Shown piece by piece: positions 38,590 to 54,588 of a stretch of DNA of 64,000 bases; position 1 is the stretch's first letter; every line of letters begins with the position of its first letter. The DNA comes from Mumia flava. GTDB taxonomy: Bacteria > Actinomycetota > Actinomycetes > Propionibacteriales > Nocardioidaceae. The position numbers and the translations under genes are program-made. The notes below the pieces were generated by a model, which was not told the DNA's origin, ran no database searches, and was given only the letters and a program-made list of their open reading frames with translations. Where the stretch lies: NCBI RefSeq assembly GCF_002797495.1, contig NZ_PGEZ01000002.1:372001-436000 (forward strand), in the 5' to 3' direction.

Positions 38590-39474
38590 GTGGAGAGCGC
38601 CAGCGAGGAGAAGCTCCGTCAGCTGATCATGCACGCGCTGGCCGAGAAGACGGCCGAGAACGGTTACGTCACCCGCGATCAGCTCAGCGCGCTTGAGGTC
38701 GACGGGAAGCCGCGACGTGTCATCGACCAGTCACGCGGCATCTGGAATCCCCGGGACATGGCGGCGACGCTGGCGGTGGTCTCCTCCCCCGACGGGCCGT
38801 ACGACGACCAGCACCTGTCGGACTCGCTGTTCCGCTACGACTACCGCGCCGGATCCATCCACGGGGACAACACGAAGCTGCGGCGCGCCCACGAACTCGA
38901 GCTGCCGATCATCCTGCTGCGCAAGATCGCCGCCGGGCAGTACGTTCCGGTCTTCCCTGTGTACGTCGTAGCGGACGATCATGCGAACCGGCAGTTCGTC
39001 CTCGCGCTCGACGAGAGCCTGCGTTTCCTGCACGACCCGATGCACCTCAGCGAGTCCGAGCGCCGTTACGCCCGGCGGGTGGCGAAGCAGCGGCTGCACC
39101 AGCCCGAGTTCCGTGGACGCATCCTGCGTGCGTACGAGACGCAGTGCGCGGTCTGCCGGCTCAAGCACGGACGGCTTCTCGACGCCGCACACATCATCGG
39201 CGATGCCGAGGACGGCGGCGAACCCGTTGTCGTGAATGGGCTTAGCCTGTGCAAGATCCACCACGCGGCCTACGACGCGAACCTGCTCGGGATCTCCCCT
39301 GACTACGTCGTCCAAATCGATCGCGATCTGCTCGAAGAGACCGACGGCCCGATGCTGAGGCACGGGCTGCAGGAGATGGACAAGCAGCCACTTCAGCTGC
39401 CCGCACGACGACGCGAACAGCCCGACCGCGAACGCCTGGCTCGGCGTTTCGAAACGTTCCGGGCGACGGGGTAA
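38590..39474 (+). CDS. HNH endonuclease, restriction type
   Basis: 294 residues from GTG 38590 (GTG 38584 is an alternative); the frame is open further upstream without support. The N-terminal two thirds include a DNA-binding-like region (TKLRRAHELELPIILLRKI) conserved in HNH restriction-like proteins. The HNH module begins with CAVCRL near residue 185, then LLDAAHIIGD near 200 and NGLSLCKIHHAAYDANLLGI near 218-237, providing Zn cysteines and the His-Asn-His core. No methyltransferase gene is next to it, so it may act on modified or foreign DNA. It is 19 bases from the DUF6884-GIY-YIG gene and probably in one unit with it. Confidence 0.82.
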   Translation: MESASEEKLRQLIMHALAEKTAENGYVTRDQLSALEVDGKPRRVIDQSRGIWNPRDMAATLAVVSSPDGPYDDQHLSDSLFRYDYRAGSIHGDNTKLRRAHELELPIILLRKIAAGQYVPVFPVYVVADDHANRQFVLALDESLRFLHDPMHLSESERRYARRVAKQRLHQPEFRGRILRAYETQCAVCRLKHGRLLDAAHIIGDAEDGGEPVVVNGLSLCKIHHAAYDANLLGISPDYVVQIDRDLLEETDGPMLRHGLQEMDKQPLQLPARRREQPDRERLARRFETFRATG

Positions 39475-39493
39475 GTGCGCGAGACTTCTCACG

Positions 39494-40801
39494 ATGGCGA
39501 ACTGGTCACCTCTACGCGAGGCACTCCGCACGGTCGACGACCGTGTCGTGTACCCATGGAAGGACCTCGACGCACTCGTGGGCGGGCTGCCCCGATCCGC
39601 CTACCAGTACGACGCATTCTGGAAGGGGCCGCGATCAGGGTGGCCCGGGTTCACCACGATCGATGTCCGCGTCGGCGAGTCCGTGACTTTCGTGCGCCGC
39701 CCGACCGGGCAGCACGCGACGGCGCCTGAACAGCAGCACAGGAGGCACCAGCAGCCCGCCGGTGTCGAGGTCGCCGACCTCCTTCTCGTCACCTGCGTCA
39801 AGCAGAAGCTCGACCACACGGCTCCGGCACGCGACCTCTACACCTCACCGCTCTTCCGCAAGGAGCGAGCATATGCAGAGGCGTCGGGCCTCCCCTGGTT
39901 CATCTTGTCGGCCGTCCACGGGCTGGTCGAGCCGGCGACCGTTCTCGAGCCATACGAGCTTCGGCTCTCTGCGACTCCGAGGTCGTATCGAAGTGAATGG
40001 GGCGCCCGGGTCGTCGCTGCGCTCGCCGAGCGGCTCGCCCCGCTGGGCAACCCGGTTGTCGAGGTTCATGCCGGCGCGGCGTACGCCGACCCGATCCGCC
40101 CGCTGCTGCTCGACCTGGGTTGTCGCGTCGTCGAACCACTGCGCGGCCTCACGATGGGTCAGCGCCTGGCCTGGTACAGGAGCACCCCTGGCTTGATGGA
40201 GTCAGGAAACTGGCAGAGCGCGCGGACGAACCTGAGCAGCACAGCGTATGAGACTCCCCGGCTGTCTGCGGTCGTCAGCGCACTAGCAAGTCCAGTCGAA
40301 TCCCGAACGCCGGCAGAGTTCCTCGCCACTGATGGCGCCGGTCTGCGTGTGCCGGGGCTCTACAGCTGGTGGGTCGACGCGACCGGCGCGCGTGAACTCG
40401 GGCGCGGTCTCGGCTTCGAGATCCAGCCCGGACTGATCTACGTGGGGCTCGCTGGCGCGACTCGCTCACGGAGCGGACGCCGATCCACCAACACGTTGTG
40501 GGGCCGTATCCGTGGGATGCATCTCGGCCGCCGCCACGAGTTCTCGACATTCCGCCGAACCCTCGGATCGGTCCTCGCAAACGCAACCGGTGAGCCAGCG
40601 ATCGATGAGACCAGCTTGACCGCCTGGATGCACGGCCACCTCACCGTCGTCGCGGTGCCTGTTCCGGACGGCGATGTGCTCAACTCTCTCGAAAGTGCCG
40701 TCCTGCAGGATCTCGACCCTCCGTTGAACCTCGCGAAGATGGCTCCGAGCCCGATCAGGCTCCGGCTCACCGAGCTTAGACGCACGTACGGCCGAAGCTG
40801 A
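39494..40801 (+). CDS. DUF6884 and GIY-YIG-like nuclease fusion protein
   Basis: 435 residues. After a small N-terminal domain (TVDDRVVYPWKDLDALVGGL), residues about 95-230 form a DUF6884/YaaA-like domain: LLLVTCVKQKLDHTAPARDL, YTSPLFRKERAYAEA, WFILSAVHGLVEPATVLEPYE. Residues about 283-430 look like a GIY-YIG nuclease: VPGLYSWWVD near 285 and GLIYVGLAG near 313, then WGRIRGMHLGRRHEFSTFRR. The YaaA superfamily includes DNA-binding and nucleobase-related proteins; pairing one with a nuclease suggests recognition of particular DNA. It follows an HNH nuclease and faces the Hhe-like gene with 16 bases between stops. Confidence 0.7.
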   Translation: MANWSPLREALRTVDDRVVYPWKDLDALVGGLPRSAYQYDAFWKGPRSGWPGFTTIDVRVGESVTFVRRPTGQHATAPEQQHRRHQQPAGVEVADLLLVTCVKQKLDHTAPARDLYTSPLFRKERAYAEASGLPWFILSAVHGLVEPATVLEPYELRLSATPRSYRSEWGARVVAALAERLAPLGNPVVEVHAGAAYADPIRPLLLDLGCRVVEPLRGLTMGQRLAWYRSTPGLMESGNWQSARTNLSSTAYETPRLSAVVSALASPVESRTPAEFLATDGAGLRVPGLYSWWVDATGARELGRGLGFEIQPGLIYVGLAGATRSRSGRRSTNTLWGRIRGMHLGRRHEFSTFRRTLGSVLANATGEPAIDETSLTAWMHGHLTVVAVPVPDGDVLNSLESAVLQDLDPPLNLAKMAPSPIRLRLTELRRTYGRS

Positions 40802-40817
40802 TCCACGACGCGACGCA

Positions 40818-43800
40818 TCAGCCGCCTTCGGACAAGCGCAGAACCCCTTTCTCACTCCGCTCGATGTAACCCTCCCGAAGGGCACGATCGATCGCGCTAC
40901 GCACCCCCGCTGCGATGTCGTTGCCCTGCCGGCGCCACCCGAACACCGACATCATCGCCCCGATCACTGCTTCGTCGCTGATGCTGACCGCATCGCCGAC
41001 CGCGTAGATCAGTGCCTGGGTCAGCTCATCGATCCCGATCTGTCCGATCGATCGGATCGCTTCCTCGTCCTGAGGCACCCGTACGATGACCCTCGCATCG
41101 CCCTGGATACTGATGATCCCGTTCAGATCTTCAGCCGGTCGAGCACCCTTGATGACGATCCGCTCGAGTACGTACCTCACGTTCTCCCGGATGGCTGATC
41201 CGATGCGGCCCACGCCGAAGGCCTCGCGCAGGCGGGTGTACACGAGATCGGTGTGAATCGGGGCCTCGACTTCGAGCAGACGGGTGAGGTAGCTGCGAAT
41301 GGCCGGGCGCGCTTCGACCGAACGAAGCTCGTACGGAGTCGTGGCTCCCTGCGAGTAGACCTCGTAGGGGACGGCCCACTTCGGCGGGGCGTCAGGATCG
41401 AAATCCTCGACCTCCAGCTGAATCTCTGAGCTCGGCTGCGGCGTTCCCCGGCTTGCTCCGCCCCGCGAGACACCCGCGTGTGCTGCCTGAATTGCTGCGT
41501 GCAGACGCTTGGTCTGCGTCGGCCGATCGCGGTACCAGCTCAGGCCCCAGATGCGATGGAGATTCCACCCGAGCCCCTCGAGAACCGACGCACGCAGTCG
41601 GTCGCGATCGCGGGCAGACCGCGCCGAATGGTAGGCAGCCCCGTCGCACTCGACTCCGATGAGAAACTCACCGGGGCGGTCCGGGTGCTTCACCCCGAGG
41701 TCGATTCGGTAGCCCGACACTCCGACCTGCGGCTGGACCTCGTACCCCCACGAGCGGATGACGCGCAGGACGTCCTCCTCGAACGGGCTCTCCACATCGC
41801 CGTGATCAGGATCAATGTTGAGGCCGAGAGCCGAGACGCCTCGCTCCGCGAACGCCAGGTACGTCCGCAAGTGCTCGACGTTCGCGTTTGCGCTCGGCGG
41901 GATGTCGGTCGACCGCAGCGACGAAACGACCTCGACACGGCGGCGCGCCCGGGTGACCGCGACATTCAGTCGGCGCCATCCGGACTTCTGATTGAGCGCG
42001 CCGAAGTGCGTGCTCACCTTGTGGGCCTCGTCAGGGCCGTAGCCGATCGAGAAGATGATGAGGTCGCGCTCGTCACCCTGAACGTTCTCGATGCTCTTGA
42101 CGAAGAAGCCCCCGAGTCGGTCATGGTCGTCCAGCATCGCCGCGACGGCCGGATCATCATCGGCGCGCTGCTCCACGGCCTGCAGGATGGCGTCCTGCTG
42201 AGCAGCCGAGAAGGTCACGACGCCGACCGACATCTCAGGATGTTCATGGGCGTGGTACGCGATCCGGTCAACGACAGCGCCGGCCTCGATCGGGTTGTCC
42301 CGCGCACCGCCCCTGCGGTAGACACCAGGCACGTGGAAGAGCTCCACCCCCAGATCGGGTGCATCGAACACAGCCCCCGGGAACGACTGCAGGGTCTGGT
42401 CGTCCGGTGCGTAGAAACGGTTGTTCGAGAACGCGATGAGGTCCTCGTGCTGGCTCCGGTAGTGCCAGGACAGCGGCAGCTGCGGCAGGACACCGGCCTT
42501 GCACACGCTGAGGATTGACTCGAACTCGTCGGGCTCGTCGTCGTCGCCGTCCTCCGCTTCGACGGCTGCTTGGAAGAACGCGGTCGGCGGGAGCTGCTTG
42601 TCGTCGCCGGCGACGATGAGCTGGCGTCCCCGATAGATGCAGTTCACGGCATCCGACGGCAGCACCTGAGACGCCTCGTCGAAGATCACCACGTCGAACC
42701 GCATGTCGCCCGGCAGGAACTGCGACACCGTCAGTGGGCTCATCATGAAACACGGCTTGAGCGACTGGACGATTTCCGACGCGACGTCGAGCACCTCCCG
42801 AATCGGCTTGTGCCGCGACTTCTTCTGCGCCTCACGCAGAATCAGCTGCGCGCCCGCCGATTGCGTGCTCCGCGGCCTCGCGTCGCTGCACGCGCGCACA
42901 ACCTCGGCGTACGCGAGGTCGACGAGCTCCTTGTCGCTCTCACGGAACGCCGTCACGAGCGCGTCTCGGTCACCCGCGCGGAACTTCTTCAGCCGCTTGT
43001 CGGCGGCGACCGTACCCTCGATCCACGCCTGGAGGACGGCCCACCGCAAGCGGGGTGCGACCTCGTCGGATGGTGGTGGTCCGTCGAGCAGGGCATCCAG
43101 AACCGGCCCGAGCTCAGCGCCTCGCAGATCCGCGCAGGTCTCGACGAACTGGATCCACTCGTCGACGTCGGCGACGGCTGTGCTCGCCATCTCCGCGAGG
43201 AGCTCAGCGGCCTCGCGGATGTCGGCATCGAGGTTGGTGCGGATCTCCGCAGACCGCAACGGTTCGAACGATGAGAGAAACGCCTCCCGATGCTTGCCCC
43301 ACGACTCGATGAGTTCCGCCATGTCGGTCGCGGAGATCGTGGGCCGGCGCATTCGCTCGGCCGTGAGCGCGCCGACGGCACCCCCTGTGTGGGTCCTGAC
43401 GCGCTCGGCCCAGTCGAGCGCGGAAGCCAGCGAGGTCCAGTCGGTCTCGATGCCGACGTAACCGTCGCCGAGGAGAGCCAGATCGTCGTCGTAGGAGTCG
43501 AAGATGCGGGACCGGTGCTCGGTGAGCTCAGCCACGTCGTGCAGGATCTCTGCTGCTCTGGCGAGTGTCAGGTCATCGGAGAGCGCAGAGACGACGTGCT
43601 CGGCCGCACCGAGTCCGGGCGCGAGATCCGAGACCGTCCTGTCGACCCAGCTGACGATCGCGTCCACCGGCCACCCTCGAACCGCCGACGTGACCTCCGC
43701 GCGTACCGCTGCACCCATCAGGTCGTCCCACGCTCGAATCCGCTCGGCCAGCGCGGCCGCGATCGGCCCCAGACGTGGATCCTGCTGCGCGTCCGCGGCG

Positions 43801-46328
43801 AGCTGCTTGGCGAGCTCGTCCGGCCTCAGGTCCGCGCCAGCGATGCGCACGGCGTGGTGCGCGGTCTCGATCGCCGACATGAGCCGGCCGAAGTCGGTGT
43901 CGGTGCGTTGGTAGTAGCGTCCGAGTCGGTCGGCATAGGTGCTCTCACCAGCGGAGAGGTTCCGCTCCGCCTGCTGCCATGCGACGGCCTCGTCCAGCGC
44001 GGCCAGCACGCTCTTGTCGACCTTCCGCCGGACGGTGACGGACTTGAGAACGCGCCGATCGGCTCGGCACTGCTTGCTCAGCCGCCCCAGGCCCGTGTGG
44101 TCGTTCGTAAAACGAAGGTTGAACGCAGCCAGGTCGACGTCCAGTGCCTCAGGCGTGAAGACGGAGGCGATCTTGTCCCGGCGCTGCTTCACCAGCGACA
44201 CGAGCTCGTGCAGGACCCGCGACGACTCGTCGAGGGCGTTCTGGACCGCCGGATTCAGCCAGGTGTTCTCGGGCGGCGTCGTGGATTCACCGAGGGTTGC
44301 CAGCTCGACGAGCTGGGAGATCCGATTCACTGTCAGGCCATCGGATGGGATGCCCAGGATCGCGGCGAGCTGACGCCCCTGCTCGACGATGTCGGCCAGC
44401 GGAACCAGCGACTCGCCGAGAGCGTCGCTCGCGCGGCGAACGACCGACACGCGTGCTCCCGACCCGCCGGGCCACACGTTGGCACGTTCTGAGGCGGGAA
44501 GGTCACGAAGGGACCGGAGCTGCGGCAGGACCTCGGGGTCGACCGCAGTCCACCCGTCGCCCACAGCCTCCCGCAGTCGTTCCTCCGCGGCCAGGTACGT
44601 CTGCGCCGAGCTGCGGAGCGACTCCTCACGATCACGCACGCCGCGGAGCGAGGTGCTGGTCAGCCACGAGTCCAGGTGGTCAGGCTGTGTTTCCAGCTCG
44701 AGCAGCAGATCACGACGCCGAACGTGATCGGCCAGACTCCGCGGTAGCTGAAGCGCGAGGTCCGCATCGACGGCCAAGCCGCGGTCGTTCAATGCCGCAG
44801 CGGACTCGCTGGCGGCGCGAGCCCCGTTCCCAAGGATGTCGCCGGTCGTCCCCTCCGGCAGCGGCAGGGTGATGTCTCGCCAGAGGAAATCGTCGCCCTC
44901 AGTCGCAGGACGCCACACGCGACCAAGCTGCTCCGCGGTCGAACGAAGGTCGAAGGCCGTTTCGGCTGTCAGGGCCGCCCACGCCCTCGGATTCGGATGC
45001 CCCGCCGGCCGTTCGAGCTGGAGTGCCAGCAGCTCTCCCAGTGCGTCCATGAGCGACCGGTCGAGCCCTGCGCGCCGCTCGTTCATGGCCTGGGCGAAGT
45101 CCGTGAGACCCTGCCTCATCGTTGCCAGCTCCGCGCGGTTGGCGTCGGTGAACTCCTTGCGCGTCTTGAAGCGCTGGGACAAGGCCTTGGCGAGCTGCGC
45201 GACCACTTCCTTGCGAGTGGCGTGATGGCTGTGGAGCTCGAGCAGGAAGTGCTCGAGTCCGGCAGCCGCGAGCCTGTCCCGCACGACATCGAGGGCGGCC
45301 GCCTTCTCACTCACGAACAGCACGGAGCGGCCCTGCGCCATCAGCTCCGCCATCATGTTCGCGATGGTTTGGCTCTTGCCCGTTCCGGGAGGCCCGTCCA
45401 TGACGAAGCTCCGCCCGTCGCGAGCCGCCGCGATGCAGGCACGCTGGCTCGTGTCAGCGTCGAGGATCGTTCTCGAACGCTCCGGCGGGGCGATCGAGTC
45501 GAGGTCCGCCGTGCGTGGGTCCCAGCCGAAACCGAGCGTCTCCTTGTGCGGGGCGTCGGTGCCAAGCGCGATCCTCTGGACGAGGTCGTGGGCCATGATC
45601 TGATCCTGGTGATCGGTCAGATCGCGGAAGATGGCCTCCTTGTGAAAGGAGAACAGCGTCATCACGACGCGCTCGTGCACGCTCCAGCCCGCCTGCTCCG
45701 AGCACGCTGCCGCGACAGCGCGCAGGTACGACACCGGATCGACGAGGTCGGAGTCCACCTCCGGCAGGGTGACGTCGAAGTCACGCTCCAGCTTCACCCG
45801 CAGGGCGGGATTGGCAACGATGTCGTCCTCCGTGCGAGTGAGCCGGAAGGGCGCCTGCGAACCCTCTCGCTCGAGCTTCACCGGGCAGAGCAGCAGTGGG
45901 CTCTCCACCTCACGCCCGTCCGACAGGTCCTTCCAGTGCAACGATCCGAGTCCGAGGTAGAGCGTCCAGTAGCCCCGATCGGCCCAGGTCTGCAATGACT
46001 GCTGGTGCTGCCGTACGAGCGACGTCCGTAGCTTGGCCGCGGTCTTTCCCGACACCCGGATCGGCGCCGTCGCGAGCCACTGATTGCTCGAGTCCAGGTC
46101 CTCGGCCGCTTCAGGTGTGCACTCGAGCCCGATCAGTGGCGATCGGTCGAGCGCCGACATGATCGAGCTCACCGACGGGGTCGTGATCTCGAGCGAGCCC
46201 GACACCGTGTGCTTGAAGTAGATCAGGCGCTGCCGTCGGTCGACCGCGACGAGATCCTCGCGCCAGGTGTCGAGCTGGTTGCGAAGCTTGCGCCGTGACG
46301 GGTCGCTCAACCGCGTGGTCGTGGTCAT
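40818..46328 (-). CDS. DUF4011-SF1 helicase-Vsr-like nuclease protein (Hhe-like defence effector)
   Basis: 1836 residues from ATG 46328, whose ATGA overlaps the stop of the HelD-like gene; longer frames upstream run inside that gene. The DUF4011 domain opens with WREDLVAVDRRQRLIYFKH (residues 14-33). The helicase has Walker A GPPGTGKSQ (K318) and motif II FDVVIFDEASQ (D1217-E1218), with AAA_11/AAA_12 pieces separated by a long helical insertion, and late motifs ENVQGDERDLIIFSIGYG and NVAVTRARRRVEVV. A Vsr/DUF559-type nuclease follows (GYRIDLGV then LIGVECDG, E1560), and a DUF3320 region near residues 1660-1720. The helicase-DUF4011-Vsr order is that of the antiphage protein Hhe. Confidence 0.85.
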   Translation of the reverse strand: MTTTTRLSDPSRRKLRNQLDTWREDLVAVDRRQRLIYFKHTVSGSLEITTPSVSSIMSALDRSPLIGLECTPEAAEDLDSSNQWLATAPIRVSGKTAAKLRTSLVRQHQQSLQTWADRGYWTLYLGLGSLHWKDLSDGREVESPLLLCPVKLEREGSQAPFRLTRTEDDIVANPALRVKLERDFDVTLPEVDSDLVDPVSYLRAVAAACSEQAGWSVHERVVMTLFSFHKEAIFRDLTDHQDQIMAHDLVQRIALGTDAPHKETLGFGWDPRTADLDSIAPPERSRTILDADTSQRACIAAARDGRSFVMDGPPGTGKSQTIANMMAELMAQGRSVLFVSEKAAALDVVRDRLAAAGLEHFLLELHSHHATRKEVVAQLAKALSQRFKTRKEFTDANRAELATMRQGLTDFAQAMNERRAGLDRSLMDALGELLALQLERPAGHPNPRAWAALTAETAFDLRSTAEQLGRVWRPATEGDDFLWRDITLPLPEGTTGDILGNGARAASESAAALNDRGLAVDADLALQLPRSLADHVRRRDLLLELETQPDHLDSWLTSTSLRGVRDREESLRSSAQTYLAAEERLREAVGDGWTAVDPEVLPQLRSLRDLPASERANVWPGGSGARVSVVRRASDALGESLVPLADIVEQGRQLAAILGIPSDGLTVNRISQLVELATLGESTTPPENTWLNPAVQNALDESSRVLHELVSLVKQRRDKIASVFTPEALDVDLAAFNLRFTNDHTGLGRLSKQCRADRRVLKSVTVRRKVDKSVLAALDEAVAWQQAERNLSAGESTYADRLGRYYQRTDTDFGRLMSAIETAHHAVRIAGADLRPDELAKQLAADAQQDPRLGPIAAALAERIRAWDDLMGAAVRAEVTSAVRGWPVDAIVSWVDRTVSDLAPGLGAAEHVVSALSDDLTLARAAEILHDVAELTEHRSRIFDSYDDDLALLGDGYVGIETDWTSLASALDWAERVRTHTGGAVGALTAERMRRPTISATDMAELIESWGKHREAFLSSFEPLRSAEIRTNLDADIREAAELLAEMASTAVADVDEWIQFVETCADLRGAELGPVLDALLDGPPPSDEVAPRLRWAVLQAWIEGTVAADKRLKKFRAGDRDALVTAFRESDKELVDLAYAEVVRACSDARPRSTQSAGAQLILREAQKKSRHKPIREVLDVASEIVQSLKPCFMMSPLTVSQFLPGDMRFDVVIFDEASQVLPSDAVNCIYRGRQLIVAGDDKQLPPTAFFQAAVEAEDGDDDEPDEFESILSVCKAGVLPQLPLSWHYRSQHEDLIAFSNNRFYAPDDQTLQSFPGAVFDAPDLGVELFHVPGVYRRGGARDNPIEAGAVVDRIAYHAHEHPEMSVGVVTFSAAQQDAILQAVEQRADDDPAVAAMLDDHDRLGGFFVKSIENVQGDERDLIIFSIGYGPDEAHKVSTHFGALNQKSGWRRLNVAVTRARRRVEVVSSLRSTDIPPSANANVEHLRTYLAFAERGVSALGLNIDPDHGDVESPFEEDVLRVIRSWGYEVQPQVGVSGYRIDLGVKHPDRPGEFLIGVECDGAAYHSARSARDRDRLRASVLEGLGWNLHRIWGLSWYRDRPTQTKRLHAAIQAAHAGVSRGGASRGTPQPSSEIQLEVEDFDPDAPPKWAVPYEVYSQGATTPYELRSVEARPAIRSYLTRLLEVEAPIHTDLVYTRLREAFGVGRIGSAIRENVRYVLERIVIKGARPAEDLNGIISIQGDARVIVRVPQDEEAIRSIGQIGIDELTQALIYAVGDAVSISDEAVIGAMMSVFGWRRQGNDIAAGVRSAIDRALREGYIERSEKGVLRLSEGG

Positions 46329-48526
46329 CGAGATTCTCCATCCGGCAGGTCGCGGGTGGTTGTCAGTCGCTGGACGAGGGCCTCGACGAGGATGAGGTCC
46401 TCTTCGGAAAGTTCGGCGATCAGGTCTGCAACACGGGACGCGCGCTCGATGCCGTCCAGCTCGTCGGACTCGCGGGTCGTCGTCACGCTGCCGCCTTCGC
46501 TCGACGGCGCACCCCCATCGAGATGAGCGAGGCCAGCCGGTAGGCGATCGCGGTGTACGACGTACAGCTGCTGCGTACATCGGGTCATCGCCACGTACAA
46601 GAGGCGATGCCCTTGGGTCGACTCGCCAACAATTTCGCCGGGCTCGACCAGGACGACGACATCGAACTCCAGGCCCTTGCATCCCGACACTGGAAGGAGT
46701 GTCAGAGGGGCGGAGAAGTCGCCGTCGCGGCCGTCCCCGGCGACTCCGGCGCTGAGCCCGGCCGCCGCCTCGTACGCATGGTCGGCCACGATCACCGCTG
46801 TCTTGCGTCCCGCCTCCGCCAAGTTGGTGCCGAGCTCGAGCGCCGTTTCCAGCGCGTCTCGTTCGACGAGCTCGACCGTCGGCTGAACGCCTGTGGTGCG
46901 CACGGAGGCAGGAACGGTCAGGTCGGGCGAAATCAGGTCGAGCTGACGTCCAGCCAAGTTGATGACCTCGCTCGGAACGCGGTATCCGACCGTCAGGTCG
47001 GCGACGAACGCGTCATCTGCGGTCAGGTGCTCCGTCAGCTCCTCCCATCGGTCCCGAACCCACGGGCCGGTCGCTTGAGCCAGGTCGCCCAGGACCGTCA
47101 TGGATCCACTCGGGCAACGACGCGCAAGTGCGCGGGCGGCCATCGGCGACAGGTCCTGCGCCTCGTCCACGACCACGTGGCCGTATCGGGCGATGGTGCC
47201 ATCGAGAAGGTGTGAGACCTCGTCCAGCACGTGGATGTCCGCTCGCGTCCAGGGTTCGGCTGCGATTGACTCCGCGGGACGCCGGTAGAGCTGCGCGCGT
47301 TCGTCGACCGTCAGGACGCCGGCGGCCGCATCGACCAACCACGTCTGAGTTCCATAGAGCGTCCGGAGGAACTCCTCAGGTGTGTACGTGGGCCAGAGGC
47401 GGTCGAGAGCGTTGGTGAAGGCAGAGAGGCGGCGGATCATCGCGGCGGTGGTCCGAACAGGACGACGAGCGTCCCGCTGACTCGCCTCGTGAAGTTCGTA
47501 CGCCCGGGCGGCGAGCTGGTTCCGCAAGACCTCGCGGGCCTCGTTGTGCGGGAGCGAGCGACTCCGGACGTCCGCCACGATCGCCGAGAGCGTGTCCGCG
47601 GGCACGACGATGCGGTCGATTCCGAGGGTCAGCACCAGGTCGTCCTCGATCCGGCCAATCCGGCGCTCCAGCGCCCGGCCAAGGACCTCCGACATCGCTG
47701 CGCTGCCCTTGACACGCGCCGCCTCGACAGGCTCGATCGCGCGTTCACGGGCCTCGCCTGGGTAGAGAGACCCGATCTCGACTTGATCGATATCGGTGAC
47801 CTCGAGTGAGGGAAGCACTCCAGCCGCGTACGAGAGGAACGCCCGTGACGGCGCGACGACGAGGATGCCCTCGTTCCGAAGCTCCTCGTAGTTGAACGCG
47901 AGCCAGGCCGCGCGGTGGAGGCCGACGACCGTCTTCCCGGTGCCGGGTCCGCCCTGAACGACGACGAGTCGCTCCCGGTCCGCGCGGATGATCCGAAACT
48001 GCTCGGCCTGGATCGTCGCGACGACCTCGCGCATCGCTCCGTCGCGCGAACGCTCGAGCTCCTGGAGGAGCGCGTCGCTGATGGAGCCCGATCCGCCCGT
48101 AGCGATCGCGTGCGCGGAGCTGCGAACGATCTCGTCGACGATCCGGTGGACGGTGCCGTTCTCCTCCTGGAAGACCCGCTTGAGCAGGAGGTCTCCCGGG
48201 TCGTCCGCCGTCGCCTCGTAGAACGGGATGGCGGCTGGCGCATGCCATCCGATCAGGACCAGGTCACGGTTCTCGTCGTACACACGCCGACGGCCGACGT
48301 AGAGCGAGCTGTCTGAGGTGTCGATCCGCCCGGCAACGAGTTGCCCGGTCCCCCGTGACTGCTGGAGAATCTCCCGGGCGCGCTTCATCGCCCGTGCCGT
48401 GAGGCGATCGAGACCTCCGTGGTTCTGGATCGCGACTTCTGCGTCGGCCAGCCCCTTGTCCAGCAGGGAGTACGCACGTGTGACGTACTCCTGCTCAGCC
48501 TCCAACTCCGCGTGTGCCGAGTCCAC
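46325..48526 (-). CDS. HelD-like SF1 helicase (RNA polymerase-associated type)
   Basis: 733 residues from GTG 48526, with GGGAGGA just upstream. An N-terminal coiled region (AELEAEQEYVTRAYSLLDKG ... ADAEVAIQNHGG), a beta-rich segment (LYVGRRRVYDENRDLVLIGWHAP), then a split UvrD-type helicase: Walker A QGGPGTGKT (K198), motif II VVVDEAQDLSP (D454-E455), GDLAQATGPW and late VSGCKGLEFDVVVLVEPG and LLYVAMTRCTQQLYVV. This is the HelD/HelR layout; those proteins remove stalled RNA polymerase, and HelR types give rifamycin tolerance. Overlap with the Hhe-like gene (ATGA) means the two are coupled, which is not usual for stand-alone HelD. Confidence 0.85.
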   Translation of the reverse strand: MDSAHAELEAEQEYVTRAYSLLDKGLADAEVAIQNHGGLDRLTARAMKRAREILQQSRGTGQLVAGRIDTSDSSLYVGRRRVYDENRDLVLIGWHAPAAIPFYEATADDPGDLLLKRVFQEENGTVHRIVDEIVRSSAHAIATGGSGSISDALLQELERSRDGAMREVVATIQAEQFRIIRADRERLVVVQGGPGTGKTVVGLHRAAWLAFNYEELRNEGILVVAPSRAFLSYAAGVLPSLEVTDIDQVEIGSLYPGEARERAIEPVEAARVKGSAAMSEVLGRALERRIGRIEDDLVLTLGIDRIVVPADTLSAIVADVRSRSLPHNEAREVLRNQLAARAYELHEASQRDARRPVRTTAAMIRRLSAFTNALDRLWPTYTPEEFLRTLYGTQTWLVDAAAGVLTVDERAQLYRRPAESIAAEPWTRADIHVLDEVSHLLDGTIARYGHVVVDEAQDLSPMAARALARRCPSGSMTVLGDLAQATGPWVRDRWEELTEHLTADDAFVADLTVGYRVPSEVINLAGRQLDLISPDLTVPASVRTTGVQPTVELVERDALETALELGTNLAEAGRKTAVIVADHAYEAAAGLSAGVAGDGRDGDFSAPLTLLPVSGCKGLEFDVVVLVEPGEIVGESTQGHRLLYVAMTRCTQQLYVVHRDRLPAGLAHLDGGAPSSEGGSVTTTRESDELDGIERASRVADLIAELSEEDLILVEALVQRLTTTRDLPDGESR

Positions 48527-48586
48527 GCTTCCTCCCGAGATGTGTGCTCCTTCGTGGCGCAGACCGTACAAGGTCCGACTGACAAA

Positions 48587-49848: not shown

Positions 49849-52287
49849 ATGGATGACCTGAACACCTGGCTCAACGCCAGACTCGACCCGGACGACTCGA
49901 TTAGTGACGACGCCAAGCTCCTCGCGTTGGCCGCCGTCGAGGGCGACGACGCACTGGCGTCTGTCACGCCCGAGGATCCGCCCCCGTCCCTCGCACAGAC
50001 CAATTCGGAGCCGTCGGCGGACGAGACCGCCGAGGCGACGGGTGCCTACCTCACAAGCATAGCCGTCCAGGGATTCCGCGGCATCGGCGAGCGCGCGACC
50101 CTCCAGCTGCATCCTGGCCCGGGGCTCACGATCGTCTCCGGCCGCAACGGGTCGGGCAAGTCGAGCTTCGCGGAGGCCCTCGAGGTCGCTCTCACCGGCG
50201 ACACGTATCGCTGGAAGAACCGTCCCGCGCACTGGGGCAGTGCCTGGCGCAACCTGCATGCCGACGTCGCGGCGGAGGTCGAGGTGGCGCTGTGCGAGGA
50301 AGAGGTCGGGAAGACCGTCGTACGCGTGACGTGGCCCGATGGTGCCGACGTCGACGACGCGACCACGACGCTCCAACGCCACGGTCAGAAGCGTGAAGCG
50401 GGGATCGAGAGCCTCGGATGGGGTGGACCGATCGAGACCTACCGTCCGCTCCTGTCGTACGAAGAGCTCGGGACAGTTCTCGGGTCCAAGCCGAGCGCAC
50501 TGCACGACGCTCTCTCGACCGTGCTCGGCCTCGAGCAGATGACCGACGCCCTTGATCGTCTCAACGAACGCCGGAAGCGGCTCGAGGCGCCCAAGAAGAA
50601 GCTCGACGCCGAGAAGCGCTCGCTGCGAGCGGACCTCGACGCGCTCGACGACGAACGCGCGAAGCAGGCTGACCTGTTGCTCGCCAAGCGGAAGCTCGAC
50701 GCCAACGCACTCCGCGCGATCGCGACCGGCACGTCGACGCCCGACGGTACGGCCGAGCGGCTCCGTGCATTGCTCGCGATCGCCGCGCCCGATGCCAACG
50801 ATGTCGACGCGGCGGCCTCCGAGCTGTCGGCTGCCCTCGCGGCAATGACGTCCGTCGGTGACGATGCAACGACTGCACTCGAGCGCCGGGTCACCATCAT
50901 CGAGCGAGCCCTCGACCTGCATCAGCACGACGGTGACCAACCCTGCCCGGTCTGCGGCGTTGGCACGCTCGACGGAGCCTGGGCCGCGCAGGCTCGCGCT
51001 GACGTCGCTGCCGACCGCCAGCAGGTGGCTCTGCTCAAGGCCGCACGAGCACGACTGACCGCTGCTCGGGAATCCGCACGTGCGCTGGTCGCCCCGGTCC
51101 CGTCGGCCCTCGCCGGCTCCACGCCCGACGTCCTTGATGAGGCCGTCGGCTCGGTCCGCTCGGCCTGGACACGCTGGTCGGCTGCACCCGCCACCGACGC
51201 CGACCTCGTCACGCACCTGCGCACAGCACTCGCACCGGTCACCGAAGCCTTGCCCCCGATGCGGGCCGCTGCCTCCGAGGTGCTCGCTGAACGCGACGAC
51301 GCATGGAGCGCCATCGCCGCCCGGCTGGCCGCGTATGCGAACGACGCCGACGCGTGGTCCGCCGCGGAGCCCGAGGCAGAGCTGACCAAGCAGGCCCATA
51401 CCTGGCTGAAGAAGAACGACCTCGATCTGCGCAACGAGCGCCTCGCACCGATCGCTGCGCAGGCGGCCAGGATCTGGCACGACCTGCGCCAGGAGAGCAA
51501 CGTCGAGCTGCAAGGTTTCGAGATCGCCGGGACGTCTACGCGCCGGCGCGTCGAGATCCAGGGCGCGGTCGACGGCGAGGACACCGGCGCCCTCGCCGTG
51601 ATGAGCCAGGGCGAGCTGCATGCGTTGGCTCTGGCGATCTTCCTCCCGCGTGCCACGATGCCGCAGAGCCCGTTCCGGTTCGTCGTGCTCGACGACCCCG
51701 TGCAGGCGATGGACCCCGCCAAGGTCGACGGTCTGGTCGCGACATTGTCGCGGATCGCGCAGGATCGCCAGGTCGTGGTCTTCTCGCACGACGACCGGCT
51801 CGCCGCGGCGGTTCGACGTGCGCCGGTCCCTGCGCAGATCGTCGAAGTCACGCGGTACGAGAGCTCGCGGGTCGAGGTCGCGAACACGTACGACCCCGCC
51901 GGACGCTACCTCCGGGACGCCTTCGCGCTCCTCAAGGACACCGGCCTTCCCGACACCACCATGCGCCGCGCGCTCCCCGGTCTTCTGCGGATGGCGACCG
52001 AAACCGCTGCTCGCGACCGGTACTGGACGACCCGACTCGCCGCCGGTGATGCTCACGACGTGGTCGAGGCAGCGTGGGCAGATGCCCGTCTGACCCGCGA
52101 CCGAGTTTCCTTGTCGCTGTACGGAGACGTCCGGTCGCTCGACGGGTGGCTGTCGAAGCGTGGCTATCGCAGGCGGGGCCTCGGAGTCTGCACTTCCGCG
52201 TTGCACGAGGGACTTCGCGGACAGCCGCGCGAAGCGTGCGAGGACGTTCAGAACCTGATCGACGACCTCAAGCGCGGGGCGCTCTGA
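49849..52287 (+). CDS. Rad50/SMC-like AAA ATPase with zinc-hook-like CPVC
   Basis: 812 residues from ATG 49849 with GGGAGC upstream. A disordered acidic N-terminus (1-65) precedes an ABC-type ATPase head: SIAVQGFRGIGERATLQL, Walker A GRNGSGKSS (K104). Long coiled-coil arms (RKRLEAPKKKLDAEKRSLRA and later AARARLTAARESARAL) meet at C366-P-V-C369, a Rad50-style zinc hook. The head is completed by the signature MSQGELHALALAIFLP, Walker B RFVVLDDPVQAMD and the switch VVFSHDDRLAAAV. A further domain of about 140 residues follows. Its stop overlaps the next start (TGATG). In defence systems such ATPases often act as sensors that trigger a partner effector. Confidence 0.82.
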   Translation: MDDLNTWLNARLDPDDSISDDAKLLALAAVEGDDALASVTPEDPPPSLAQTNSEPSADETAEATGAYLTSIAVQGFRGIGERATLQLHPGPGLTIVSGRNGSGKSSFAEALEVALTGDTYRWKNRPAHWGSAWRNLHADVAAEVEVALCEEEVGKTVVRVTWPDGADVDDATTTLQRHGQKREAGIESLGWGGPIETYRPLLSYEELGTVLGSKPSALHDALSTVLGLEQMTDALDRLNERRKRLEAPKKKLDAEKRSLRADLDALDDERAKQADLLLAKRKLDANALRAIATGTSTPDGTAERLRALLAIAAPDANDVDAAASELSAALAAMTSVGDDATTALERRVTIIERALDLHQHDGDQPCPVCGVGTLDGAWAAQARADVAADRQQVALLKAARARLTAARESARALVAPVPSALAGSTPDVLDEAVGSVRSAWTRWSAAPATDADLVTHLRTALAPVTEALPPMRAAASEVLAERDDAWSAIAARLAAYANDADAWSAAEPEAELTKQAHTWLKKNDLDLRNERLAPIAAQAARIWHDLRQESNVELQGFEIAGTSTRRRVEIQGAVDGEDTGALAVMSQGELHALALAIFLPRATMPQSPFRFVVLDDPVQAMDPAKVDGLVATLSRIAQDRQVVVFSHDDRLAAAVRRAPVPAQIVEVTRYESSRVEVANTYDPAGRYLRDAFALLKDTGLPDTTMRRALPGLLRMATETAARDRYWTTRLAAGDAHDVVEAAWADARLTRDRVSLSLYGDVRSLDGWLSKRGYRRRGLGVCTSALHEGLRGQPREACEDVQNLIDDLKRGAL

Positions 52288-53171: not shown

Positions 53172-54443
53172 TCAGCGGGATGGACGCCGCGGAAGGCTCT
53201 CGGCCACGTGGCGTAGCGCAGTCCGCAGCAGGGCGATCGTGCTGTCCCAGCCCGCCGCCTCGCGCCGACAGGCTCCGATCTCGTCGGCGTCGCCGCTCTG
53301 CTCGGCTGCCTCAGCCGCCGTGCTCCAGGCGATCTCCTCCTGTTCGCACTGACGGATCAGGCTCAGGATCAGTTCGCTGTCGTGGTGGCACACGGCTGCC
53401 GCGACCTCGGGCTCGACTGCACCCGTACCTTCGGGGTCCAGCTGGAGCAGCATCATGAGCTCGTGCGGTAGCTCCTCGTTCTCCTGATCGCTCCCGGGCT
53501 CGTCGGCGAAGGATTCCTGAGCAGTCCCAGGCCCCCCGTCCGCTTCATCATCCAGGTCGGTCACGTCCACCGCACGACGTCCGCCGGTTCGCTCTGCGAG
53601 GTCCTCAGGGACCTCCGCCAAGACCTCGAGCATCAGCGCCAGCATGCGCCGGACGTGGCTCGGCACGAACGGGCTCGCAGGCAGGTGGAGCCGTGCGAGC
53701 ACCGAGTCGCCCTGGAGGAAGAAGCAGACGTAGCGGGAGTTGCGGTTCAGGATCGCGACCGCTCGCAGCGCGGCCAAGCGGTCCTGGACATCCGCGACCA
53801 CCAGCCCGACGAGGTCCACGGCCGGGTCGGTTGCTGGCACCGATACGAAGACCCGAGCGCCTTCCGAGCGGACCGGGATGTCGCCATCGTGGTCCTTGAT
53901 CGGCGCGTGACCGAAGACCGGTGTCAGTGCGTCGTCAACGAGCTGCAGGAGGTGGTCGCGGTCGTGGGGCACGACTGCGATCGGCTCGTCGGCGGCTTCG
54001 GCGCGCACGGTCGCCCCCATCGCAGCGATCGTCGGAGTGGGAACCCGCAGCGCCGCGATGGCGGCAGGGCCGCCGTCGACGTCCAGCAACGCAGGATGGG
54101 CGACCCCGATGACTGTCCTCAACGCCCCGACAGCGAGGGACACGAGGTTCTCGACCCCGTCGAGCTCGACGGCGAAGTAGTACACGTCGTCGTCTTCGTC
54201 CCACCCGAGGGCCCGCATGGACTCGCGCACCGATTCGGTGTCGGAACCGGCCGCATCGGCATCCATGACGACGTCGACGACCGGCTCTTCCCAGCCGAAC
54301 GTCATCAGCGCGTCGAGGCGGTACTCGCCGGACCAGAGCAACCGAACCGGGCTCGCGTCCAAGATCTCGTCCTGCAGGAACGTGGTCAGCCGCCGTGTAA
54401 AGCGGCTCCAGCTCGCCTCCGTGGCGTCTTCAAAGTCACGCAT
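53172..54443 (-). CDS. YbjN/TY-Chap-like protein, unknown function
   Basis: 423 residues from ATG 54443 with AAGGGGGAC upstream. The N-terminal third has the fold of TY-Chap/YbjN (type III secretion chaperone-like) proteins: TRRLTTFLQDEILDASPV, VRLLWSGEYRLDALMTFGW; a second domain near 185-300 includes VGLVVADVQDRLAALRAVAILNR and VCFFLQGDSVLARLHLPASP. The C-terminal region is acidic and helical. Such domains occur in actinobacterial proteins with no assigned role and in predicted conflict contexts. It converges on the ATPase module and lies downstream of the ADP-ribosylglycohydrolase gene on the same strand, 145 bases apart. Confidence 0.6.
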   Translation of the reverse strand: MRDFEDATEASWSRFTRRLTTFLQDEILDASPVRLLWSGEYRLDALMTFGWEEPVVDVVMDADAAGSDTESVRESMRALGWDEDDDVYYFAVELDGVENLVSLAVGALRTVIGVAHPALLDVDGGPAAIAALRVPTPTIAAMGATVRAEAADEPIAVVPHDRDHLLQLVDDALTPVFGHAPIKDHDGDIPVRSEGARVFVSVPATDPAVDLVGLVVADVQDRLAALRAVAILNRNSRYVCFFLQGDSVLARLHLPASPFVPSHVRRMLALMLEVLAEVPEDLAERTGGRRAVDVTDLDDEADGGPGTAQESFADEPGSDQENEELPHELMMLLQLDPEGTGAVEPEVAAAVCHHDSELILSLIRQCEQEEIAWSTAAEAAEQSGDADEIGACRREAAGWDSTIALLRTALRHVAESLPRRPSR

Positions 54444-54588
54444 CCGTCCCCCTTGGTCGGCCGAGGTCCCACCTGCGGACTCGCATCGACTCGCCACCAA
54501 TCTAGGCCCGATCACCGACAGTTCTTGCCGGCGCGGAGCGGGCCCAGCACCTCACCAGCGACCTACGGAGCGCCCCTGGACGTCTGCA

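What the first reader, a model, noticed from the sequence alone, without database searches (positions are those of the whole stretch)
38590..40801. HNH nuclease followed by DUF6884-GIY-YIG fusion without a methyltransferase
Two different nuclease genes sit 19 bases apart. The second joins a YaaA-like DUF6884 domain to a GIY-YIG domain. No modification enzyme is adjacent, so the pair does not look like a classic restriction-modification set. A YaaA-like domain may recognise modified bases or damaged DNA, suggesting a modification-dependent nuclease.
Basis: partly seen in the sequence, partly recalled or inferred. Interest (0 to 1): 0.55.

Follow-up and report, generated by a model that had tools for sequence, protein, structure and literature searches.

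The report
Putative modified-base-sensing defence nuclease
A bacterial gene joins a domain related to enzymes that act on unusual DNA bases to a DNA-cutting domain, and it is often found among anti-virus defence genes, so it may well cut viral DNA that carries an unusual base.

Summary
An HNH gene (38590-39474 +) is followed after 19 bp by a 435-aa gene (39494-40801 +) with DUF6884 and GIY-YIG domains. The pair is not a unit: no HNH homologue was found in 24 loci of fusion relatives, and no fusion near 29 other HNH loci. The HNH protein resembles TagI-type SRA-HNH enzymes; its SRA part is unproven.

The fusion looks like a mobile, stand-alone defence gene. Relatives lie near genes of different systems (BREX, DISARM, SIR2-Argonaute, type I R-M), and sister copies have different partners, so no single methylase belongs to it. 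The key residues of both domains are kept in all 16 full-length copies of the mobile form, and are lost together in a chromosomal side clade (14 of 14).

DUF6884 proved homologous to DpdC, which acts on 7-deazaguanine in DNA. Best explanation: DUF6884 captures a non-canonical base and GIY-YIG cuts nearby, a methylase-independent, type IV-like enzyme with a new reader class. The modified substrate is inferred, not shown.

The parts
39494..40801 (+). Fusion gene, 435 aa: DUF7662 - DUF6884 - GIY-YIG
   Evidence: Pfam; homologues; alignment
39503..39700 (+). DUF7662 (residues 4-69); predicted order helix-strand-helix-helix-strand-strand, as in winged-helix domains (topology only)
   Evidence: 95.1 bits; secondary structure of the model; the winged-helix comparison is inference
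39782..40180 (+). DUF6884 (residues 97-229), YaaA-like, homologous to DpdC
   Evidence: (5caj Z 9.8)
39794..39808 (+). CxxxK motif (C101-K105), putative base-pocket residues
   Evidence: motif named in PMC11701544 (passage)
39905..39922 (+). LSAxxG motif (residues 138-143)
40355..40783 (+). GIY-YIG nuclease domain (residues 288-430): Y290, Y316, R338, H343, E400, N412
   Evidence: (R.Eco29kI Z 6.5-6.7; UvrC domain Z 5.8); conservation
38590..39474 (+). HNH gene, 294 aa; HNH domain residues 186-235; N-terminal part SRA-like (unproven). Upstream neighbour, not a conserved partner
40818..46682 (-). DUF4011 - SF1 helicase - MTES_1575 nuclease (PADLOC PDC-S37 / Hhe), convergent neighbour
   Evidence: 1242.7 bits to PDC-S37, 566.2 to Hhe

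Best explanation
The fusion is a solitary, mobile anti-phage nuclease of type IV style. SHOWN: domain make-up; co-conserved key residues of both domains; homology of DUF6884 to DpdC and fold similarity to YaaA; patchy distribution, often near genes of unrelated defence systems; no constant methylase or HNH partner. INFERRED: the N-terminal module (DUF7662, replaced by another sequence in some relatives) docks the protein on DNA; the DUF6884 pocket (CxxxK, SAxxGL) captures a flipped-out non-canonical base, most plausibly a modified guanine of phage DNA, perhaps with covalent help from the cysteine; the GIY-YIG domain then cuts near that base. Self DNA is spared because it lacks the base, so no methylase is needed.
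For: (1) DUF6884 (38 sequences used) against DpdC (7 sequences): hhalign probability 96.2, score 64.3; the best of 200 column-shuffled controls scored 20.1, the reversed alignment 13.0, and unrelated HNH, GIY and DUF7662 alignments 16.2, 7.9 and 8.8. C...K, LY.G..F, SAxxGL and Y are collinear. One of the DpdC proteins lies in a dpdC-dpdB-dpdA operon. DpdC is described as hydrolysing dPreQ0 to dADG (PMC12839542, passage). (2) HRTV-29 gp32, a DUF6884 protein (108.7 bits), is the neighbour of its annotated DpdA gene. (3) Of 17 loci of the mobile form, 8 lie near genes of known systems (BREX 4, DISARM 2, SIR2-Argonaute 1, type I R-M 1) and 3 more near a full-length hit to a candidate or single component (PDC-S37/Hhe, PDC-S53, HmaA) (L033 and L038 by BLAST clustering with L036). 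(4) All 16 full-length copies of the mobile form keep C101, K105, Y290, Y316, R338, H343, E400 and N412; in 14 of 14 side-clade copies C101, K105, Y316 and R338 are changed together, as expected if both sites serve one reaction. (5) The host has no QueC hit, so it probably cannot make preQ0. (6) Precedent for reader-GIY-YIG fusions: wH-GIY-YIG enzymes act on 6mA DNA (PMC11037411, passages); EVE-GIY-YIG fusions are reported (PMC7641849, passage).
Against: No substrate was tested. QueC says little: among 39 genomes one strong hit and nine weak ones of about 20-24 bits in long frames, four of these in carriers of the fusion; the weak ones pass the tool's cut-off, and I read them as other ATP-using enzymes without testing it. 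The actinobacterial DpdC did not hit PF21818 at E<=0.1; a 7-sequence profile against one DpdC gave hhalign probability 0.8 and a pairwise alignment was not significant (80 of 500 shuffles as good). Only the deeper profiles show the homology. Of 55 viral DUF6884 records, only HRTV-29 matched its own DpdA, and an earlier TGT-model search missed even that positive control, so most viral DUF6884 genes have no shown link to 7-deazaguanine. Foldseek alone found nothing in the PDB at E<=0.001. The neighbour count has no matched background, and generic PADLOC hits also occur around the side clade. Joint loss of both sites could be general relaxation.
Confidence: 0.5

Rival explanations
1. Restriction glycosylase plus nuclease: DUF6884 removes a modified or damaged base and leaves an abasic site, and GIY-YIG then breaks the strand there.
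For: Glycosylases are proven phage defences (Brig1, PMC11078745, passages; Brig3, PMC13160076, abstract and passages). Base-excision restriction enzymes exist (PMC10273834, search listing only). The B. subtilis DUF6884 protein YfjM was reported among interactors of DNA lesions (PMC11701544, passage).
Against: Similarity to the glycosylase SMUG1 is only Z 5.0 or less, no better than cutinases and glycosyltransferases. The reaction described for the homologue DpdC, dPreQ0 to dADG, keeps the base in place.
Confidence: 0.17
2. DNA repair or damage-processing nuclease, not a defence gene: DUF6884 finds lesions and GIY-YIG incises, as in UvrC.
For: YfjM lesion binding; the GIY-YIG domain also matches UvrC (Z 5.8); [quoted passage not shown]
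Against: Patchy occurrence (mobile form in 13 of 294 family genomes), broken copies (L008, L014, L019), plasmid carriage and changing defence neighbours fit defence better than repair.
Confidence: 0.13
3. Sequence-specific restriction enzyme of Eco29kI type whose protecting methylase is encoded elsewhere.
For: R.Eco29kI is the best structural match of the GIY-YIG domain (Z 6.5-6.7). The genome holds one C5 methylase with a PCQ motif about 39 kb away.
Against: No constant methylase was seen near 17 loci; sister copies lie by BREX or DISARM genes. A DpdC-like domain that keeps its motif is not expected in such an enzyme.
Confidence: 0.1
4. HNH and fusion form a two-nuclease system here, co-transcribed and cooperating.
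For: Same strand, 19 bp apart.
Against: 0 of 24 loci of fusion relatives carry the HNH gene and 0 of 29 other HNH loci carry the fusion within about 1.5 kb. In G021, G161 and G085 both families are present on different contigs, G085 having the side-clade form.
Confidence: 0.05

Closest known systems
wH-GIY-YIG N6mA-dependent type IV enzymes (Ahi29725I, Apa233I; PMC11037411, passages)
   Same: Reader domain fused to GIY-YIG; methylase genes reported as rare neighbours
   Different: Reader is a winged helix for 6mA; here a DpdC/YaaA-like DUF6884 core lies between an N-terminal module and GIY-YIG
R.Eco29kI (PDB 3mx1, 3mx4, 3nic)
   Same: GIY-YIG fold, Z 6.5-6.7 over residues 254-435; the entries' titles name inactive Tyr and Glu variants
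   Different: Type II enzyme of a single nuclease domain (recalled); no DUF6884
DpdC of the Dpd 7-deazaguanine system
   Same: Homologous domain with CxxxK, LY, SAxxGL motifs
   Different: DpdC is a modification enzyme encoded with dpdA and dpdB; Dpd marks host DNA
YfjM (B. subtilis DUF6884) and E. coli YaaA (5caj)
   Same: Same Pfam family (YfjM, PMC11701544) or same fold (YaaA, Z 9.8)
   Different: No nuclease fusion is described for them in the passages seen
BrxU (BREX island, PMC13390438) and GrwAB (GmrSD family, 7-deazaguanine phages, PMC12137116); passages of both
   Same: Modification-dependent restriction; BrxU is encoded in a BREX island; GrwAB recognises 7-deazaguanine DNA
   Different: DUF262-type proteins of the GmrSD family, another fold
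TagI, SRA-HNH (6ghs), for the neighbouring gene
   Same: HNH part matches by profile (whole-sequence E=0.0046)
   Different: SRA part only collinear at 0 bits

Membership tests
GIY-YIG nuclease superfamily | Profile match to a GIY-YIG family | tested here: met
   GIY_YIG_2, 44.0 bits against a cut-off of 22.4
GIY-YIG nuclease superfamily | Catalytic Tyr, Tyr, Arg, Glu, Asn | tested here: met
   Y290, Y316, R338, E400, N412 invariant in 14 aligned sequences and in 16 of 16 full-length copies of the mobile form
DUF6884 (PF21818) | Profile match with CxxxK and LSAxxG | tested here: met
   158.8 bits; motifs at 101-105 and 138-143
DpdC | Homologous catalytic core with C...K | tested here: met
   hhalign 64.3 against at most 20.1 in 200 shuffles; thinner comparisons not significant
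DpdC | Works with DpdA/DpdB and a preQ0 pathway in the same genome | tested here: not met
   No DpdC-model match and no QueC in the genome; the gene is not filed as DpdC. DpdA and DpdB were not searched in the whole genome
Type II R-M system | Dedicated adjacent methylase | tested here: not met
   No constant methylase across 17 loci; not every gene of each locus was scanned
[quoted passage not shown]
   Needs an assay
[quoted passage not shown]
   As above; methylases seen near 7 of 17 loci belong to BREX, DISARM or type I genes
SRA-HNH (TagI, ScoA3IV), for the 38590-39474 gene | HNH nuclease with Cys-Cys...His...Asn...His | tested here: met
   HNH_2 in 28 of 28 members; invariant C186, C189, H201, N216, H225 (L071 and L083 left out of the alignment)
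SRA-HNH (TagI, ScoA3IV), for the 38590-39474 gene | N-terminal SRA domain | tested here: inconclusive
   Collinear with TagI residues 67-109 at 0 bits; no Pfam SRA hit in 28 members; the model was too poor (pLDDT 41.6)
Uracil-DNA-glycosylase-like (SMUG1, Brig1) | Glycosylase fold | tested here: inconclusive
   SMUG1 Z 5.0 or less, at the level of unrelated folds

The most novel reading that the evidence does not exclude
The fusion turns the active site of a 7-deazaguanine-processing enzyme (DpdC lineage) into the trigger of a restriction nuclease. The CxxxK pocket captures preQ0-type bases in phage DNA, possibly through a covalent thioimide, and this fires the GIY-YIG cut: a nuclease that senses a modified base by catalytic chemistry rather than by a passive reader domain. 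I know of no other such nuclease, but made no search for that claim.
Probability: 0.2. Interest if true: 0.8.

Novelty: new variant of a known kind. Interest (0 to 1): 0.56.

Why it matters
Modification sensors of restriction enzymes are described as falling into only a few groups, the PUA superfamily being the largest, with winged-helix domains as another (PMC11037411, passages). A DpdC/YaaA-like reader would be a further class, and it would give the DUF6884 family, found alone in many phages, a testable role. It also bears on a question put in print: whether hosts evolved modification-dependent enzymes against deoxyarchaeosine phage DNA (PMC5567051, passages). GrwAB recognises 7-deazaguanine phages (PMC12137116, passages); this would be an unrelated solution.

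Tried and rejected
HNH plus fusion as one system: rejected. The 24 loci include five of the DUF7669 kind (L045-L047, L049, L050) and three with broken or partial copies (L044, L048, L051); some contigs are short. The 29 HNH loci come from the 30 best of 37 matches and have about 1.5 kb on each side.

TGT model PF01702 in viral DUF6884 records: 0 of 55, including HRTV-29 with its annotated DpdA, so the positive control failed and the result says nothing. The HRTV-29 DpdA protein then matched only its own record, 1 of 55. 49 of these records were drawn with peptide patterns of one phage protein, among them KLDHAAPA, so they are a biased sample and the lysine of CxxxK is partly selected for.

QueC as a discriminator between carriers and non-carriers: one strong hit (G143), nine weak ones of about 20-24 bits (four in carriers), 29 without, of 39 genomes; no signal.

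DpdC against DUF6884 by pairwise alignment and by a thin profile: not significant, and no PF21818 hit in the actinobacterial DpdC. The deeper profiles were significant.

Scans of viral contigs with the fusion, alone or as an alignment: no relative. The genome-contig scan gave only Streptomonospora alba.

HNH structure model: pLDDT 41.6, not used. Foldseek PDB search of the fusion model: nothing at E<=0.001; VIA-align looked again at the same list. DUF7662 was not folded or searched alone.

PADLOC hits at E<=1e-8 as proof of a defence neighbour: dropped, because helicases and kinases around the degenerate clade and an ABC transporter-like protein beside L031 also pass. I counted only full-length or multi-gene hits. 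L039, L042, L043 and L052 had partial hits and were not counted; L031 and L035 had none that counted. Not every gene of each locus was scanned, and no system was shown to be complete (loci end inside several).

Huimycin-type glycosyltransferases as relatives of DUF6884 were a memory lead; the passages seen gave no support.

No paper on a DUF6884-GIY-YIG fusion was found in the searches. This covers the held open-access library only.

Full report
WHAT IS THERE. The window holds an HNH gene (38590-39474, GTG start) and, 19 bp on, a 435-codon gene (39494-40801), same strand. The second protein has three Pfam domains: DUF7662 (4-69, 95.1 bits), DUF6884 (97-229, 158.8 bits) and GIY_YIG_2 (288-430, 44.0 bits), all over their cut-offs. 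The next gene, convergent and 16 bp away, is a DUF4011-helicase-MTES_1575 protein matching PADLOC PDC-S37 with 1242.7 bits and Hhe with 566.2.

THE TWO NUCLEASES ARE NOT A PAIR. Homologues of the fusion were found in 33 of 294 genomes of the family at E<=1e-10; 13 of these, the window's genome included, carry both domains in what I call the mobile form (one, G110, is split by a frame break), and most of the rest are of a divergent side clade, described below. Others are in Streptomonospora alba and on three Rhodococcus plasmids. The HNH protein was sought in the 24 loci of fusion relatives then held: none. HNH homologues exist in 37 of 293 genomes of the order at E<=1e-15; of the 30 best HNH loci, only the window's own had the fusion within about 1.5 kb. 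Three further genomes have both families on different contigs (G021, G161, and G085 with the side-clade form).

THE HNH GENE. HNH_2 matches 28 of 28 aligned members. The family profile finds one solved structure, TagI (6ghs, E=0.0046), through the HNH part; the region of the SRA domain is collinear but scores 0 bits. TagI is an SRA-HNH enzyme that cuts at a distance from a modified cytosine (PMC6212794, passages). The host genome encodes a C5 methylase with a PCQ motif, so if the HNH enzyme reads 5mC it must not read that methylase's sites, or the methylase is inactive. SRA membership is open.

NEIGHBOURS OF THE FUSION. I looked at 17 loci of the mobile form: the window, L031-L043 and L052-L054 (L032-L043 are the wider stretches of L002-L013). 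Genes of known systems lie in 8: BREX BrxA, BrxB, BrxC and PglX in L036 and, by BLAST clustering, in L033 and L038; BrxC plus PglXI in L032; DISARM DrmD in L037 and DrmMI in L034, each also having a relative of the other's gene; SIR2-APAZ plus short Argonaute in L040; a type I methylase with annotated R and S genes in L054. Three more have a full-length hit to a candidate system or to one component: PDC-S37/Hhe (window), PDC-S53 (L041) and HmaA, some 7 kb away (L053). Partial hits only: L039, L042, L043, L052. None that counts: L031, L035. Methylases were thus seen near 7 of 17 loci (L032, L033, L034, L036, L037, L038, L054), with a partial DrmMI-like match in L042. On the tree of the DUF6884-GIY core, close relatives have different partners (L006 BREX, L007 DISARM), and the two copies with a different N-terminus (L010, L011) nest inside the DUF7662 clade. 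So the core looks like an independent cargo gene with a swappable N-terminal module. There is no matched background for these counts, and generic PADLOC hits occur elsewhere too.

ACTIVE SITES. In 14 aligned sequences C101, K105, S139, A140, H142, H192, Y290, Y316, R338, H343, E400 and N412 are invariant. Over 34 rows, all 16 full-length copies of the mobile form keep these residues (one has G143D); L008 is truncated, and L014 and L019 are broken and uninformative. A separate clade in one related genus (14 rows, L016-L018 and L020-L030) has DUF7669 in place of DUF7662 in the member scanned (L047) and sits in a conserved chromosomal setting in the four loci compared (L046, L047, L049, L050). 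There all 14 have lost C101, K105, Y316 and R338; H343 is lost in 13 and E400 in 10. One copy outside both groups (L015, the same gene as L045, also with DUF7669) lost C101, K105 and E400 but keeps R338. Joint loss is what one expects if the two sites serve one reaction; it is also what general relaxation would give.

STRUCTURE. The model of the fusion (24 sequences, only two of them full length) has mean pLDDT 77, about 94 over DUF6884 and lower in GIY-YIG. VIA-align: YaaA 5caj Z 9.8 (93-253), AF0587 2q07 Z 8.5, R.Eco29kI Z 6.5-6.7 (254-435), UvrC GIY-YIG Z 5.8. These GIY-YIG Z values are in the range that the tool calls common, so that assignment rests on Pfam and on the residues. From memory, not tested: AF0587 belongs near archaeosine synthase, whose family motif also has a C-x3-K.

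LINK TO 7-DEAZAGUANINE. Pfam's authors describe DUF6884 as YaaA-like with CxxxK and LSAxxG, and YfjM as an interactor of DNA lesions (PMC11701544, passages). A genome-mining preprint lists DUF6884 as the domain of dpdC (PMC11888242, passages); another paper calls DpdC DUF328 and gives its reaction as dPreQ0 to dADG (PMC12839542, passage). My test: seven DpdC proteins, one from a dpdC-dpdB-dpdA operon, two directly before a gene annotated DpdB, and four taken as DpdC by similarity alone, against 38 DUF6884 domains gave hhalign probability 96.2 and score 64.3, with a maximum of 20.1 in 200 column shuffles. Thin comparisons had failed. HRTV-29 carries a DUF6884 gene directly before DpdA. The host has no QueC, but relatives with and without the fusion look much the same. 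DUF6884 itself is uncommon in the phylum: 16 of 396 genomes.

MECHANISM. I take the fusion as a methylase-free restriction nuclease: DUF6884 captures a non-canonical base, and GIY-YIG cuts. Steps shown: architecture, conservation, homology, patchy occurrence often among defence genes. Steps inferred: base flipping, identity of the base, cleavage, phage target. Rivals are a glycosylase-nuclease, a repair nuclease and an Eco29kI-like type II enzyme.

NOVELTY. Reader-plus-GIY-YIG fusions are known (wH, EVE), a BREX island is known to carry a type IV enzyme, BrxU (PMC13390438, passages), and GrwAB recognises 7-deazaguanine phages (PMC12137116, passages). Hence a new variant of a known kind.

Noticed in passing
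L016-L018, L020-L030 (side clade); L046, L047, L049, L050 for context: A chromosomal form of the fusion, with conserved neighbours in the four loci compared and DUF7669 at the N-terminus in the one scanned (L047), has lost key residues of both DUF6884 and GIY-YIG in 14 of 14 copies. It looks like a domesticated pseudo-enzyme.
   Followed up: partly
38590-39474: The HNH gene belongs to a TagI-like family found in 37 of 293 genomes of the order, although the genome also has a C5 methylase with a PCQ motif.
   Followed up: partly
46325-48571 (-) and 49849-52287 (+): UvrD/GajB-like helicase and GajA/PtuA-like ATPase frames near the fusion (partial PADLOC hits); the region may be a larger defence island.
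   Followed up: no
53175-54515 (-) and L043:10422-11720: A TY-Chap chaperone-like protein lies in the window, and a homologue lies 72 bp after the fusion in L043.
   Followed up: no
L108-L156, L097-L102: Stand-alone DUF6884 genes are common in viruses: 49 loci in one scan of viral contigs and 100 phage records with a match, the 40 listed being nearly all annotated hypothetical. The 49 frames all have CxxxK, but the search pattern partly selected for it.
   Followed up: partly
L101:5004-6129 (HRTV-29): A DUF6884 gene annotated 'peroxide stress protein YaaA' directly precedes DpdA; it may be a small DpdC-like enzyme.
   Followed up: partly
L008/L038, L014/L044, L019/L048: Broken copies of the fusion (frame breaks or stops), as often seen for defence genes under turnover.
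   Followed up: no
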